Of a DNA stretch of 42,449 bases, positions 29,889 through 36,507 are shown one piece after another (the stretch's first letter is position 1; every line of letters begins with the position of its first letter). A program made the position numbers and the translations under genes. The notes beneath the pieces are model-generated. The model saw only the letters and a list, made by a program, of their open reading frames with translations, was not told the DNA's origin and did not search any database. The stretch comes from Acholeplasmataceae bacterium (GTDB taxonomy: Bacteria; Bacillota_I; Bacilli_A; ML615J-28; CAG-698), in contig JAAYBG010000007.1 of NCBI GenBank assembly GCA_012718985.1, forward strand, positions 1 to 42,449, in the 5' to 3' direction.

Positions 29889-31676
29889 TTACTTAATTTT
29901 ATCTTTTTGTTCGAAACCTAAACGTTTTAACGTTTCAATAACATATGATTCGCGATATTCATCTTCAGGCTTACGATTGTAATAAGAATAGAAGAATTCT
30001 TCGTTTGCTTTTTCATAAGGAAGTCCTGAAATGAAAGAAATAATTCTTGTGCTACGGTCGATTAATTTTTTATTTGTTGGTAGAACTTGAACCATCCAAT
30101 TTCCCCACACTCTTCCCATTTTTGCCATTGTCGCTGTGCTTAATAAATTGAATGTCAATTTAACCATTAAATGAGGAAGTAAATCCATTATTGTATTAGG
30201 TAGGTCAACAGGAATGTGGATTTCATGTTCTGCAATTTTATTGCTTGGAATATGACCTAAGCGGATTGCTACACCTTCGCTAAACTTAAGAGCATTTTTT
30301 TTGAACCATTCCACCGATTTTTCATTTGCAGAGCCATTGATATCAATGCAAATTAATCTAGATGGCTTACGTGAATAACGAGATGGATCATCTTCATTAC
30401 CAATAACATAATCTGTTACTTCTGTTGCGCCAACTTTTGGTGGTTTATTGATGATGTCTTGTGCTGCTTTCATTCTAATATAGTCTTCAACTGTCCATTC
30501 TAAACCTTTGATTGGTCGACGGAAAACATGTTGCCAAGCAACCTCATTTGGATATAAAGGGTTTTTAATATATGCCCAACTAATTGGACTTACTTTATCA
30601 TTGAATTTTCTAAATGGTGGTAATGTGAATGTTGGTTGACGTTCTGTAGTATCTGTCATGATATCGATAAAATACTCTGAAGTAACATAAGTAACCAAAC
30701 CATTTTGATTATACGTTTCTGTTTCCAAATCAACCGCAGAAGCTAGACCTTTTAAGGCTTCTCCTTTTGATAGTTTATCCAATAATTTTTGGAATTCATC
30801 TGAATATTCACTTAATTCTAATGCTTTTGAGCCGATTGCTTCTAATTCTTTTTCGCTTAAATTTTCTTTTAGCCAACGCCAGCTAGCAACTTCCATTGCT
30901 GCTCCAACAGCTAATAATTCAACTGTGGTAACTTGCATTCTTGTTGAACCAGCAACAGCCATATTACCCACGAATAGAGGTATTTTAATGATGTCTTTTC
31001 TTTCAAAAACAACTCTTACTCGGTCAAGGTGCTTACAAAGAATTTCTTCTGGATTACAGAATATATAATATGTTGTACAACCTCTTTCAATGGCTTCTAA
31101 AACAGAGCCATTTATACTAGCTGATAAACCACACTCTGCTAAACCAACAACAACGTCACCAGGTCCTACACCTGCTTCAACAACTTGTTGACGACCAAAA
31201 GTCATATAATCTTCAAAGTTTTCAACTGCTCTAACAAGCGCTCTGTCCCCACCAGTCATCAAGCTATCCGTGATTTCACTTATTTCAATCAATTGTGATC
31301 TTCTAACTGGTAATTTTAAGCCTAATTCTGTCCAGAATTTTCGCCATGTAGCATCTAGTTGTAGCGCCATTCTTCCACTGGCACCAACACTCGAGAAAAG
31401 TATCTTTTTCTTGTTTATAATAGCTTTATATATATCATCAACAAATCTTTTAAATTCTGGAGTTTCAAAAGCCTTTTTAGTTACAGATGGAATATTTACA
31501 TCTGCTGATAAAATTGTTTTAATCCCTTCGGCAGTATTTTGAGCAATGATGTAACTCATGTTTTTTGTTAATGGATTCGACTGCTCAGTAGGAATTACTC
31601 CCAAATGAAATTGCTTTTCATTTTCTAAAAAGTCTTTGCTCGCCTCTTTGTAATTTTTAATCGTTTTATAAATCAT
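29889..31676 (-). CDS. Double-length SIS-domain protein related to MurQ and glucokinase regulatory protein
   Basis: 595 residues, about twice MurQ (N-acetylmuramic acid 6-phosphate etherase, about 300). The N-terminal half follows MurQ: IPTEQSNPLTKNM, SVGASGR (96-102), LMTGGDRALVRAVENFEDY (Glu152 matches one MurQ catalytic Glu), DVVVGLAECG, FCNP, and GSTRMQVTTVELLAVGAAME. The second catalytic Glu of MurQ (DASECPPTF) is Trp111 here (DATWRKFW). About 240 inserted residues, including TERQPTFTLPPFRKFNDKV, precede a second MurQ-like end (LMVKLTFNLLSTATMAKMGRVWGNWMVQV, in that order). The two-SIS layout and length match animal GKRP, a sugar-phosphate-binding regulator. Sugar-phosphate binding is likely; etherase activity is doubtful. 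It has its own promoter and terminator; a PfkB kinase gene lies just upstream. Confidence 0.8.
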   Translation of the reverse strand: MIYKTIKNYKEASKDFLENEKQFHLGVIPTEQSNPLTKNMSYIIAQNTAEGIKTILSADVNIPSVTKKAFETPEFKRFVDDIYKAIINKKKILFSSVGASGRMALQLDATWRKFWTELGLKLPVRRSQLIEISEITDSLMTGGDRALVRAVENFEDYMTFGRQQVVEAGVGPGDVVVGLAECGLSASINGSVLEAIERGCTTYYIFCNPEEILCKHLDRVRVVFERKDIIKIPLFVGNMAVAGSTRMQVTTVELLAVGAAMEVASWRWLKENLSEKELEAIGSKALELSEYSDEFQKLLDKLSKGEALKGLASAVDLETETYNQNGLVTYVTSEYFIDIMTDTTERQPTFTLPPFRKFNDKVSPISWAYIKNPLYPNEVAWQHVFRRPIKGLEWTVEDYIRMKAAQDIINKPPKVGATEVTDYVIGNEDDPSRYSRKPSRLICIDINGSANEKSVEWFKKNALKFSEGVAIRLGHIPSNKIAEHEIHIPVDLPNTIMDLLPHLMVKLTFNLLSTATMAKMGRVWGNWMVQVLPTNKKLIDRSTRIISFISGLPYEKANEEFFYSYYNRKPEDEYRESYVIETLKRLGFEQKDKIK

Positions 31677-31744: not shown

Positions 31745-31788
31745 TGAAAAAAACGATTTTACTTTATCAAACTAGTGTATAAATCATT
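31745..31788 (-). terminator. Probable terminator of the sugar kinase gene
   Basis: AATGATTT / AAATCGTT on the minus strand (one U-G pair, long 21-nt loop) followed by eight T; the stem overlaps the stop codon. Weak stem but good T run. Confidence 0.5.
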
Positions 31789-32671
31789 TTATTATTTCTT
31801 CTCGATATGGAATCGATGGCATTACATAATCTTTGGTTACACTAAGTCCTGAAGCTTTAAGGGCAAACTTTGTTGCTTCTAATAATGTCATTTTTTCTCC
31901 TAATCCCACCACTAAAGCCGCATTGAAGATATCTCCTGCACCTGTAGTATCAACTACTTTCACTTTTATCGCCGGTAAATGATGAACCTTACCTTCTTCT
32001 AGTACTAAAGCCCCCTCTTTTCCCAGTGTTACAACCATTCTTGGAAAATTAAGTTTTGGCAGTACAGAAATTAAATCATCTAAATGATGGACCTCATTAA
32101 GAGCGAATAATTCCCTGACTTCATGCCAATTAGGAGTAATAAGCCATGCATATTGTATAATTTGCGATGTAAATGAAGTTACTGGTGCGGGATTAAGAAT
32201 AACTTTTATCTTGTTTTTTTTAGCCCATTCAAGAACACTATTCAAAACAGTTGGAGGAATCTCTTGATTTAAAAGTAAAAAATCAAAGTCATTCCCTTCT
32301 TTAAAAAATATGGGCAAATCTTTTTCTTCGAGCGTGTTACCCGGATAAACCGTCACTTGATTGTTTCCATTTTTATCGCGAAGAATTACCGCTAAAGCCG
32401 TTTTCCCTGGTTTTTTTATAATACCATGTTTGATTCCTTGATTAGTTAAGTAATCACAGCAATTGTTACCATAGGTATCATTGCCAACTGCACTCAAAAA
32501 GTAGGGCTCTCCCCCTAGCCTTTTCACTGCAACAGCTTGATTATAACCTTTCCCCCCCACTTCTTGATGAACATCAGAAGCATGAAGCGTTTCTTCTGGC
32601 TTATGGAAATGATTAATCCGCATGAAAATTGATTGTCCACATAAACCGACAATTCCAACTTTAGTTTTCAT
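31784..32671 (-). CDS. rbsK: PfkB-family sugar kinase, ribokinase-like
   Basis: About 295 residues. PfkB landmarks: the N-terminal GGKGYNQAVAVKRLGG, substrate loop, AVGNDTYG, the LNPAPV stretch typical of ribokinases, ITPNWHE, VVTLGKEGALV, and the C-terminal anion hole and base VVDTTGAGDIFNAALV with Asp. It phosphorylates a sugar, probably ribose, at a terminal hydroxyl. The ATG at 32671 lies 6 nt after GGAG; an earlier in-frame ATG at 32683 lacks a good site. It is transcribed alone from its own promoter. No ribose transporter or rbsD is nearby, so the ribose assignment rests on motifs only, and the SIS-protein neighbour leaves open another sugar. Confidence 0.82.
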   Translation of the reverse strand: MKTKVGIVGLCGQSIFMRINHFHKPEETLHASDVHQEVGGKGYNQAVAVKRLGGEPYFLSAVGNDTYGNNCCDYLTNQGIKHGIIKKPGKTALAVILRDKNGNNQVTVYPGNTLEEKDLPIFFKEGNDFDFLLLNQEIPPTVLNSVLEWAKKNKIKVILNPAPVTSFTSQIIQYAWLITPNWHEVRELFALNEVHHLDDLISVLPKLNFPRMVVTLGKEGALVLEEGKVHHLPAIKVKVVDTTGAGDIFNAALVVGLGEKMTLLEATKFALKASGLSVTKDYVMPSIPYREEIIK

Positions 32672-32699
32672 ATTATTCTCCATCTTTTACCACGTATTA

Positions 32700-32729: not shown

Positions 32730-32760
32730 AAATAAAAAGCATCGTTTGAATGATGCTTTT
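32730..32760 (-). terminator. Terminator of the polyamine operon
   Basis: AAAAGCATC / GATGCTTTT (32735-32743, 32752-32760) with an 8-nt loop, followed on the minus strand by TTATTT, just after the aguB stop. Confidence 0.8.
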
Positions 32761-32764
32761 AATT

Positions 32765-33634
32765 TTACTTATGTGCTTTTCCATCTAAATACATAATTGT
32801 TTCGTACATTTCTGGACGGCGATCGCGAAAAACTCCCCAATAACGCCGTTTTTTATTAATTTCATCTAAATCAAATTCAGCAATCAAATACCCTTCTTCT
32901 TCACGATTCAAAGAATTAATAATTTCACCATCAGGACCAGAGATAAACGAAGACCCATAGAAAGTCATTGTTGAATTGTCTTGAACCTCTTGACCAACTC
33001 TATTAGAAGCAACCACAGGAATAATATTTGCCGCTGCATGCCCCCTCATAACATTTTGCCAATGTAACATACTATCTTGAGGCAAAATTGGTTCAGTTCC
33101 TATCGCTGTTGGAAACAGTAAAATCTCTGCTCCTTGTAATGTTAATATTCTAGCTGTTTCAGGAAACCATTGGTCCCAACAAATACCTATACCAACCTTA
33201 CCAAATTTTGTATTAAATACTTTATATCCAGTATCACCAGGAGAAAAATAAAATTTTTCTTCATAACATGCTCCTGTTGGAATATGAGTTTTACGATAAA
33301 GACCTAAATTGGTACCATCAGCATCAATCATAACCAAAGAATTAAAATAATTATTGCCTGATCGCTCAAATAAGCTAATTGGCAAAACAACATTATTTTC
33401 CTTTGCTACTTTTTGAAATTCTTTTATTAACATCGAAGACTCTATCTCTTCTGCTAGAGAAAAATAATCATAATTTTCTGTCTGACAGAAATAAGGCGTT
33501 TTAAAAAGTTCTTGTAATAAAATAATATTAGCACCTTTTTTAGCACATACTTCTACCATTTTTTTAGCTTTTTTAATATTATCATCAATATTCCAAGAAA
33601 TTTTCATTTGTGTTGCTGCAACTTTTATTTTCAT
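32765..33634 (-). CDS. aguB: N-carbamoylputrescine amidase
   Basis: 289 residues of the nitrilase superfamily with the Glu-Lys-Cys triad: Glu42 (LLQELFKTPYFC), Lys115 (YRKTHIPTG) and Cys152 (GIGICWDQWFPE). The stretch HIPTGACYEEKFYFSPGDTG and TEPILPQDSMLHWQNVMRGHA are characteristic of the AguB group. It hydrolyses N-carbamoylputrescine to putrescine, CO2 and ammonia. The ATG is 8 nt after GGAGG and 13 nt after the stop of the decarboxylase-deiminase fusion gene, so it finishes the pathway started there. The terminator follows directly. Confidence 0.95.
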   Translation of the reverse strand: MKIKVAATQMKISWNIDDNIKKAKKMVEVCAKKGANIILLQELFKTPYFCQTENYDYFSLAEEIESSMLIKEFQKVAKENNVVLPISLFERSGNNYFNSLVMIDADGTNLGLYRKTHIPTGACYEEKFYFSPGDTGYKVFNTKFGKVGIGICWDQWFPETARILTLQGAEILLFPTAIGTEPILPQDSMLHWQNVMRGHAAANIIPVVASNRVGQEVQDNSTMTFYGSSFISGPDGEIINSLNREEEGYLIAEFDLDEINKKRRYWGVFRDRRPEMYETIMYLDGKAHK

Positions 33635-33647
33635 AAACGAATCCTCC

Positions 33648-36248
33648 CTATAATTTTGTCGGAATCTGCATTGTCATACAGTGGATATTACCACCGCCCA
33701 ATAAAATCTCCCTTGTGTTAATTTGGATAATTTCCTTTTCAGGATAATTTTGTTTCATAATATTATAAGCTATTTCATCCTCAGGAACTCCGAATGCAGG
33801 CAAAATGACATAAGCATCAGATTGATAGAAGTTGATATAACTAGCCGATAAACGCGAATTAACCAAACGTTCTTTGCTTGTATGTTCACGATTATCAATT
33901 CCTTTTGCTTCTTCTTCAGTCATGTATAAAGGTTTTGGTAATGGTATCTTCACAATCTCAAATTTTCTCCCTTTAGAATCGGTTGTTTCGCTTAACGTGT
34001 TGTAAGCATCGACACACATTTGATATTGTGGATCATTAACATCATCACACCATGCAAGAGCAATCTTGCCAGGTGCTAAGAAACATGCCATATTATCGAT
34101 ATGTTCATTTGTTTCATCAAGATAAATTCCATTTTTTAACCAAATTACTTTTTCCACATTTAAATTTTCTTTGAGAATGTTCTCAATTTCTTCTTTAGTT
34201 AGAGTTGGATTTCTTCCTTCGCTTAGTAGGCAAGCCTCTGTTGTTAGACAAGTTCCTTCACCATCAAAGTGAACACTACCCCCCTCTAAGATAAATCCTT
34301 TATTCAAATAGTAAGAAAAACCTAGTTTCTCGCAAACCTTTTTTGCTAGGGCATCATCAAAATCCCAATTAGTATATAAACCATCGACATTTCCACCCCA
34401 TGCGTTGAAGCCAAAATCAATTCCTCTAATCTCTTTTTCGTTTACTACGAAGATTGGCATATTATCCCGTGACCAAGCATCATTATATTCAATTTTTAAA
34501 ATTTTAACATTCTTGATTCTGAAATCCTTCGCTACTTTTGCATAGATACTCGGATCAATGCCTAAATATACAGGTTCGTATTTGGCAATTGCTTCAATAA
34601 TCTCCTTTAAATTGTTTCTTGCATAGGTACCACTATTACGCCATATATCTTTACGATATGGCAATAACATCAAAGTAGCTAAGTGTTTACGTCCCTCAAA
34701 AGGAACAATAAAACCATCTTCTTTTGGAGTAGTCAATACACGTGAATAATACCCCTCTATCTTACGATGATAGCGAGAATAATTTGTCCATGATTTTTGG
34801 TCAATTACAGAGACACTACCATCATCATAATCGCTAAGAATAGTAGAACCAGTTCCTTTATAATATTCAATACGACGCACTAATTCCTCTGTAAAGACCT
34901 CACCTGGAACAACAAGCGGAATACCAGGAGGGTATACCATAATCGATTCTTTAGAAATTTCATCAATCGCATCCGCTAATTTTACTCGTTTCATCGCTGC
35001 ATGATAAGCAGTACGTGGTCTTAACAGTGCAATTGGGAATTCAATATTGAAGTGATGTCGTGGATAATTCATTTCTCCAACAAAATATTCACTCGAAATT
35101 TCTTTTAGTGCTTTTACTAAATTATTAATATGTTCCTCTTTCGTGCCTATACCGATAATTCCTAAAACAACATAGGTTTCCGCTAGTTCCATTTGTACAT
35201 GGTACTTGTCTTTCAACAGATTATATAATTCAAAACCAGTCAACTTCATCATGTCTAGTTCAATAACCAACTTAGTTTGATCATAATCAAAGCAACCCAT
35301 ACTTTGAAAATGGTCTTTTCCTCGTGCTTTAAAGCCAGGAATTTTATTAATTTCTTCTCGTGCATAATTGGCAAAAGCAATTGCTTGATCGACTTTTTCT
35401 TTTCCTTCTATGACCATAAACTTTCTTGCAGCATCTAGACTTGCCATTAAAACAGAAGATGGGCTTGTTGAATTGATTGCATTTAAAGTCTTACGAATAT
35501 CATAATCTGAAACTCGATTGCCTTTTCTTAATAAAATAGAAGATTGTGTTAATGATCCCCCCATTTTATGAAGACTGACTGCGCTCATGTCAGCACCGCA
35601 TTCCATAGCGCTAAGTGGAGCATTTTCTGTAAAGCCAAAGTGAGCACCATGTGCTTCATCAACCAGACACAACATTGAATTATCATGTGCTAATTTTACG
35701 ATTCTTTGTAAGTCTCCTACAGCGCCAAAATACGTTGGATTGATAACAAACACGGCTTTAGCACTTGGATGTTTTTTTATCATGCGTCGATAATCTTCAA
35801 ATGTCGGTTGATTTGCAATTTCTAAATCTGAATCCAATTCAGGCATGATAAAAACAGGCATTGCACCACTTAAAATTAGTCCATTGATTATCGATTTATG
35901 ACAATTTCTTGGTATGATGATTCTATCATTAGCTTTACAAGCGGTCATAATCATGGTAATAATCCCACTGCTCGTTCCATTAATTAAAAAGAAAGCTTGG
36001 TCAGCTCCAAAAGCATCTGCCATTAACGCTTCCGCTTCTTTAATAACCCCCGCTGGACGATTCAAGTTATCTAGTCCTCTAGGTCCATTCACATCCGCTC
36101 TATAGACACTGATTCCTATATAACGACTTAAGTCATTCTCAACATTCCCCATATGGTGACCTGGCACATCAAAAGGTGATATTCCTTCCTCCATATATTT
36201 TTTTAATGCAGTTAAATATGGTGTTTTATTATGATCTAATTGTGCCAA
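33648..36248 (-). CDS. Fused arginine decarboxylase - agmatine deiminase
   Basis: 866 residues in one uninterrupted frame. Residues 1 to about 490 are a fold-type I Orn/Lys/Arg decarboxylase of the short Gram-positive type: TPYLTALKKYMEEGISPFDV, VPGHHMG, FFLINGTSSG, VDEAHGAHF, the PLP lysine K228 in SAVSLHKMGG, and YPPGIPLVVPGE with GTGSTILS. Residues about 502-866 are a full-length agmatine deiminase: TPKEDGFIVPFE, NDAWSRDNMPIFVV, DFGFNAWGGNVDGLY, VLEGGS-like FILEGGSVHFDGEGT, LLSEGRNP, DETNEHIDNMACF (catalytic His) and GGGNIHCMTMQIP (nucleophile Cys857). Reactions: arginine to agmatine, then N-carbamoylputrescine plus ammonia. The start codon is TTG with GAGG 7 nt before it; the first ATG would cut into the conserved N-terminus. 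aguB follows 13 nt downstream. Arginine rather than lysine specificity follows from the fused partner. Confidence 0.93.
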   Translation of the reverse strand: MAQLDHNKTPYLTALKKYMEEGISPFDVPGHHMGNVENDLSRYIGISVYRADVNGPRGLDNLNRPAGVIKEAEALMADAFGADQAFFLINGTSSGIITMIMTACKANDRIIIPRNCHKSIINGLILSGAMPVFIMPELDSDLEIANQPTFEDYRRMIKKHPSAKAVFVINPTYFGAVGDLQRIVKLAHDNSMLCLVDEAHGAHFGFTENAPLSAMECGADMSAVSLHKMGGSLTQSSILLRKGNRVSDYDIRKTLNAINSTSPSSVLMASLDAARKFMVIEGKEKVDQAIAFANYAREEINKIPGFKARGKDHFQSMGCFDYDQTKLVIELDMMKLTGFELYNLLKDKYHVQMELAETYVVLGIIGIGTKEEHINNLVKALKEISSEYFVGEMNYPRHHFNIEFPIALLRPRTAYHAAMKRVKLADAIDEISKESIMVYPPGIPLVVPGEVFTEELVRRIEYYKGTGSTILSDYDDGSVSVIDQKSWTNYSRYHRKIEGYYSRVLTTPKEDGFIVPFEGRKHLATLMLLPYRKDIWRNSGTYARNNLKEIIEAIAKYEPVYLGIDPSIYAKVAKDFRIKNVKILKIEYNDAWSRDNMPIFVVNEKEIRGIDFGFNAWGGNVDGLYTNWDFDDALAKKVCEKLGFSYYLNKGFILEGGSVHFDGEGTCLTTEACLLSEGRNPTLTKEEIENILKENLNVEKVIWLKNGIYLDETNEHIDNMACFLAPGKIALAWCDDVNDPQYQMCVDAYNTLSETTDSKGRKFEIVKIPLPKPLYMTEEEAKGIDNREHTSKERLVNSRLSASYINFYQSDAYVILPAFGVPEDEIAYNIMKQNYPEKEIIQINTREILLGGGNIHCMTMQIPTKL

Positions 36249-36477: not shown

Positions 36478-36507
36478 AATAAAACCTCATTTAGAAACGA
36501 GGCTTAT
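36478..36507 (-). terminator. Terminator of the malic enzyme gene
   Basis: AAGCCTC / GAGGTTT on the minus strand (10-nt loop) followed by TATTAAT; modest stem just after the stop. Confidence 0.6.

What the first reader, a model, noticed from the sequence alone, without database searches (positions are those of the whole stretch)
33648..36248. Arginine decarboxylase and agmatine deiminase fused in one protein, next to aguB
Seen: one open frame joins a complete PLP decarboxylase (K228 in SLHK) to a complete agmatine deiminase (His in NEHID, Cys857 in GGGNIHC) with a linker of about 15 residues and no internal start or stop. Known: these are normally separate proteins (SpeA, AguA). Inference: the fusion channels or co-regulates agmatine, and with aguB 13 nt downstream the whole route from arginine to putrescine sits in a two-gene transcript with a TTG start. 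I do not know of a description of this fusion.
Basis: partly seen in the sequence, partly recalled or inferred. Interest (0 to 1): 0.75.

Follow-up and report, generated by a model that had tools for sequence, protein, structure and literature searches.

The report
Arginine decarboxylase–agmatine deiminase fusion enzyme
Uncultured, mostly gut-associated bacteria carry one gene whose protein joins the first two enzymes of the arginine-to-putrescine pathway, with the third enzyme's gene directly behind it; the join is real, conserved in about 60 genomes searched and apparently undescribed, but both halves look like ordinary known enzymes.

Summary
Window 33648-36248 (-) is one 866-codon frame: a short ("ancestral", AAT-fold) Orn/Lys/Arg decarboxylase joined to an agmatine deiminase (AguA), with aguB 13 nt downstream. 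It is not an assembly error. The same fusion is intact in a sister genome (88% identical), in 59 genomes of a second family of the same class (about 52-59% identical), and in a single-contig 1.06-Mb genome. All 25 distinct fusions examined are followed on the same strand by aguB, and all catalytic positions checked are kept. Related lineages keep speA, aguA and aguB as separate but overlapping genes whose decarboxylase tail is homologous to the fused "linker". Genomes with the fused or split AguA module lack agmatinase (0/14 have it), while relatives with a lone decarboxylase have it (4/4), which points to arginine as substrate. Best reading: a bifunctional enzyme (arginine → agmatine → N-carbamoylputrescine), completed by AguB to putrescine. 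AlphaFold2 folds both domains confidently, but their relative placement is not determined (pTM 0.63), so channelling remains unsupported. No description was found in the open papers searched; the nearest is the Fusobacterium ODC–arginase-like fusion. New variant of a known kind; activity is inferred, not assayed.

The parts
33648..36248 (-). Fused gene (866 aa, TTG start): arginine decarboxylase (SpeA-like) + agmatine deiminase (AguA)
34803..36248 (-). Decarboxylase part, residues 1-482 (OKR_DC_1 9-322, OKR_DC_1_C 398-464, C-terminal strands to ~482)
35565..35567 (-). K228, PLP-binding lysine in SLHK
   Evidence: alignment with PDB 2X3L; invariant in 20 fusions
34734..34802 (-). Junction, residues 483-505 (D483, W487, helix 490-503); homologous to the C-terminal tail of unfused decarboxylases in related split operons
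33651..34733 (-). Agmatine deiminase part, residues 506-866
34464..34481 (-). D590-x-W592-x-R594-D595, substrate/guanidine-binding motif of AguA
34095..34103 (-). H716-I-D718, catalytic His and Asp
33678..33680 (-). C857, catalytic Cys in GGGNIHC
32765..33634 (-). aguB, N-carbamoylputrescine amidase (TIGR03381), 13 nt downstream; same-strand next gene in all 25 fusions examined
36482..36505 (-). Terminator-like hairpin after the upstream malic-enzyme gene
   Evidence: pattern match only
32735..32760 (-). Terminator-like hairpin after aguB (readable on both strands)
   Evidence: pattern match only

Best explanation
A genuine bifunctional enzyme. The N-terminal PLP domain decarboxylates L-arginine to agmatine; the C-terminal pentein domain hydrolyses agmatine to N-carbamoylputrescine plus ammonia; AguB, encoded next, hydrolyses that to putrescine. 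The two-gene unit replaces the arginine decarboxylase + agmatinase route used by relatives. The fusion most likely arose by loss of the stop or frame boundary between overlapping speA and aguA genes, and its main effect is fixed 1:1 production and co-localisation of the two enzymes. Shown: the fused frame, its conservation, intact catalytic residues, operon context, module replacement. Inferred: both activities, arginine specificity, direction of evolution. Not shown: channelling.
For: Full-length fusion in the sister genome G001, in G059, in 59 of 196 genomes of family f7 in one open frame, and in a single-contig genome (OX437086.1). Every one of 25 distinct fusions has aguB next on the same strand. 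AguA positions D590/W592/D595/E655/H716/D718/C857 invariant in 25/25, matching residues in the Medicago/Arabidopsis enzymes (PMC6447857). PLP lysine and DEAHGAH conserved. dN/dS below 0.1 in both domains and the linker between sister genomes, though dS is saturated. Agmatinase family present in 0/14 fused or split genomes but in 4/4 lone-decarboxylase relatives, next to the decarboxylase in G010. AlphaFold2 mean pLDDT 91.9; the AguA part matches PDB 3H7C/2JER with TM 0.96 to target and 41-42% identity.
Against: No biochemical data. This decarboxylase family also contains ornithine and lysine decarboxylases (PMC8503589), and specificity was not read from residues. In the nearest described fusion (Fusobacterium ODC-arginase-like) the second domain appears inactive (PMC8503589); here the residues are intact, but activity is untested. 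The window's assembly is a 136-contig draft; no reads were available.
Confidence: 0.87

Rival explanations
1. The fusion channels agmatine: the two active sites exchange agmatine without release, or the ADC and AguA oligomers build a joint particle that keeps agmatine low.
Against: Domain placement not confident (pTM 0.63, linker pLDDT ~66); the junction is inherited decarboxylase tail, not a new docking element; split operons do the same chemistry without fusion.
Confidence: 0.15
2. Only one half is active; the AguA half, or the decarboxylase half, is a structural or regulatory remnant, as in the Fusobacterium ODC-arginase-like fusion.
For: Precedent in PMC8503589.
Against: All catalytic residues checked in both halves are invariant across 20-25 fusions; aguB always downstream; no other full-length AguA or decarboxylase of this family in the window's genome and no agmatinase.
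Confidence: 0.07
3. Assembly artefact or sequencing error joining two genes.
For: Draft MAG; related lineages have overlapping separate genes.
Against: Independent genomes, including a single-contig one, carry the same fused frame; purifying selection across the junction.
Confidence: 0.01
4. The decarboxylase half acts on ornithine or lysine, so the two activities serve different routes.
For: The AAT-fold ancestral family includes ODC and LDC (PMC8503589).
Against: Fusion to AguA and linkage to aguB; lone relatives pair with agmatinase instead. PMC8503589 suggests that class Bacilli may encode only ADC activity in this family.
Confidence: 0.04

Closest known systems
SpeA, ancestral-form AAT-fold arginine decarboxylase (Bacillus subtilis type)
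   Same: Same domains, length (~480 aa) and PLP motif as the N-terminal half; relatives 40-64% identical
   Different: Normally a separate protein, often paired with agmatinase SpeB
AguA, agmatine deiminase (TIGR03380; Enterococcus 2JER, Arabidopsis 3H7C, Streptococcus 2EWO)
   Same: Same fold (TM 0.96 to target), ~42% identity, all catalytic residues
   Different: Normally a separate protein; here it is the C-terminal half, with PFEG/LPYR in place of the GEFE/WPER motifs of typical AguA
Fusobacterium nucleatum ancestral ODC-arginase/agmatinase-like fusion (PMC8503589)
   Same: Same decarboxylase family fused at its C-terminus to a domain of a guanidine-processing family
   Different: Ornithine decarboxylase; the partner is an unrelated metallo-hydrolase fold lacking metal ligands and probably inactive; confined to Fusobacteriaceae
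SpeD-SpeD-derived ODC fusions (PMC10407285)
   Same: Two polyamine-pathway activities in one chain, demonstrated biochemically
   Different: Pyruvoyl enzymes of one fold; other steps of the pathway
Overlapping speA-aguA-aguB operons of Anaeroplasma/Acholeplasmatales-like MAGs (L042-L047, L066-L068, L145)
   Same: Same three predicted activities in the same order; closest relatives of both halves
   Different: Three separate reading frames with short overlaps

Membership tests
Ancestral AAT-fold arginine decarboxylase (SpeA) | OKR_DC_1 plus OKR_DC_1_C domains without N-terminal receiver domain | tested here: met
   N-terminus begins directly at the decarboxylase domain
Ancestral AAT-fold arginine decarboxylase (SpeA) | PLP lysine in S-x-HK and DEAHGAH motif | tested here: met
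Ancestral AAT-fold arginine decarboxylase (SpeA) | Arginine rather than ornithine/lysine as substrate | not testable with these tools
   only indirect: context and agmatinase replacement
AguA agmatine deiminase (TIGR03380) | Score above the equivalog cut-off | tested here: met
   455.2 vs 381.8 bits, (the subfamily model NF010070 is narrowly missed, 471.6 vs 483)
AguA agmatine deiminase (TIGR03380) | Catalytic Cys-His-Asp and guanidine-binding Asp/Glu | tested here: met
AguA agmatine deiminase (TIGR03380) | Pentein fold | tested here: met
AguA agmatine deiminase (TIGR03380) | Deiminates agmatine | not testable with these tools
   needs an assay
Substrate-channelling bifunctional enzyme | Active sites linked by a tunnel or fixed proximity | tested here: inconclusive
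   pTM 0.63, weaker linker; monomer model only

The most novel reading that the evidence does not exclude
The fusion makes a joint ADC/AguA assembly that hands agmatine from one active site to the other, so the cells make putrescine with almost no free agmatine pool; to my knowledge this would be a first such case in polyamine synthesis.
Probability: 0.12. Interest if true: 0.65.

Novelty: new variant of a known kind. Interest (0 to 1): 0.42.

Why it matters
It adds an apparently unreported domain architecture to polyamine biosynthesis, gives a compact way to recognise arginine-to-putrescine capacity in uncultured rumen and gut Bacilli (where automated annotation may show only one of the two functions), and offers a natural series (separate genes, overlapping genes, fused gene) for testing what enzyme fusion gains. 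Both halves are ordinary enzymes, so the surprise is moderate.

Tried and rejected
Assembly artefact: rejected by recurrence. Internal start for separate AguA: TTG at residue 505 is not conserved. Number of fusion events: window-genus fusions, f7 fusions and split operons form an unresolved three-way split; one clade of all fusions is not rejected (p-AU 0.676 on ADC, 0.451 on AguA), nor are the two alternatives. So one fusion, two fusions, or fusion followed by fission cannot be told apart, and horizontal transfer into the window's genus is likewise only possible. Downstream use of putrescine: no SpeD in 14 genomes, no NspC above cut-off, no SpeE hit in the window's genus and weak hits elsewhere; end use unknown. 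A Pfam scan of neighbouring genes failed on coordinates and was not repeated.

Full report
What is there. The minus-strand frame 36248-33648 encodes 866 residues without an internal stop. Residues 9-464 match the Orn/Lys/Arg decarboxylase domains, residues 506-863 match agmatine deiminase (TIGR03380 above cut-off), and aguB (TIGR03381 above cut-off) begins 13 nt downstream behind GGAGG. The TTG start has a GAGG motif 7 nt upstream and is also TTG in the two other genomes of the genus. A terminator-like hairpin lies between the upstream malic-enzyme gene and the fusion, and another directly after aguB, so a two-gene transcript is plausible; these are pattern matches only.

It is real and conserved. 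The window is the whole of contig C27 of a 1.45-Mb draft genome. The sister genome G001 carries the same fusion at 88% identity; G002 carries both ends of the gene, broken by contig ends. In a second family of the same class (f7), 59 of 196 sampled genomes have the full-length fusion in one frame, three more have it cut by contig ends, and none shows the two domains as separate complete genes: the others have a lone decarboxylase, a lone AguA, or no match at the threshold used. Named records include rumen and horse-faeces MAGs labelled Erysipelotrichaceae or Bacilli, and OX437086.1, a single 1.06-Mb contig. Between the window and G001, dN is 0.06-0.11 in both domains and the junction against dS above 1.5 (saturated), so the junction is under purifying selection like the rest.

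Anatomy of the join. In nine related operons (L042-L047, L066-L068, L145) speA, aguA and aguB are separate, with neighbouring frames overlapping by a few to some tens of bases. In several of these the decarboxylase ends in a tail such as VSVIDFDTWDLYEKHKKDLEEYYESIK, homologous to the fused stretch VSVIDQKSWTNYSRYHRKIEGYYSR, which in the fusion runs almost straight into the AguA start TTPKEDGF. The linker is therefore mostly inherited decarboxylase tail. Trees of each half place the window-genus fusions, the f7 fusions and the split operons in an unresolved three-way split; a single origin of the fusion is compatible with the data but not demonstrated, and the split state may be either ancestral or secondary.

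Function. All AguA catalytic positions checked are invariant in 25 fusions and correspond to residues described for the Medicago and Arabidopsis enzymes (PMC6447857). The PLP lysine and surrounding motifs of the decarboxylase are invariant in 20 and align with PDB 2X3L. aguB is the next gene, same strand, in all 25. Genomes with the fused or split AguA module have no arginase/agmatinase-family gene (0 of 14), while the four sampled relatives with a lone decarboxylase all have one, in G010 directly beside the decarboxylase. This replacement pattern supports arginine as the substrate and putrescine as the product. SpeD is absent from all 14 genomes, NspC gives no hit above cut-off, and SpeE has no hit in the window's genus, so the classical spermidine routes seem missing; what the putrescine is used for is unknown.

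Structure. AlphaFold2 gives mean pLDDT 91.9 with a weaker stretch at about residues 490-510 and pTM 0.63: two well-folded domains whose relative placement is not determined. The C-terminal half matches solved agmatine deiminases at TM 0.96 to target; the N-terminal half matches decarboxylases of the same fold. This neither shows nor excludes channelling.

Literature. Searches of the open library found separate ADC and AguA enzymes, pyruvoyl SpeD-ODC fusions (PMC10407285) and the Fusobacterium ODC-arginase-like fusion whose second domain is probably inactive (PMC8503589), but no ADC-AguA fusion. Most subscription journals and the protein annotation databases could not be searched, so 'undescribed' is provisional.

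Verdict. A genuine, conserved fusion gene, most likely encoding a bifunctional enzyme: a new variant of a well-known kind (fusion of consecutive pathway enzymes). The channelling idea is untested and is not needed to explain the data.

Noticed in passing
L042-L047, L066-L068, L145: speA, aguA and aguB in overlapping frames; in several f21 members AguA starts at PYEG/PFEG and lacks the usual TPxxDGF N-terminus, which could mean they derive from a fused ancestor by fission.
   Followed up: partly
G000, G001, G059, G010, G011, G281, G181 and others: AguA/AguB module and agmatinase are mutually exclusive among the 18 genomes checked.
   Followed up: partly
window 29889-31676 (-): 595-aa SIS-domain protein resembling N-acetylmuramic acid 6-phosphate etherase but about twice as long and below family cut-offs, next to a PfkB-family kinase (31784-32683).
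   Followed up: no
G162, G476, G454 (family f5): Genomes whose AguA-like genes contain many in-frame TGA codons (TGA probably read as Trp) carry two AguA-like genes each.
   Followed up: no
window 34734-34736 (-): In-frame TTG at residue 505, exactly at the AguA domain start, not conserved in the sister genome.
   Followed up: yes
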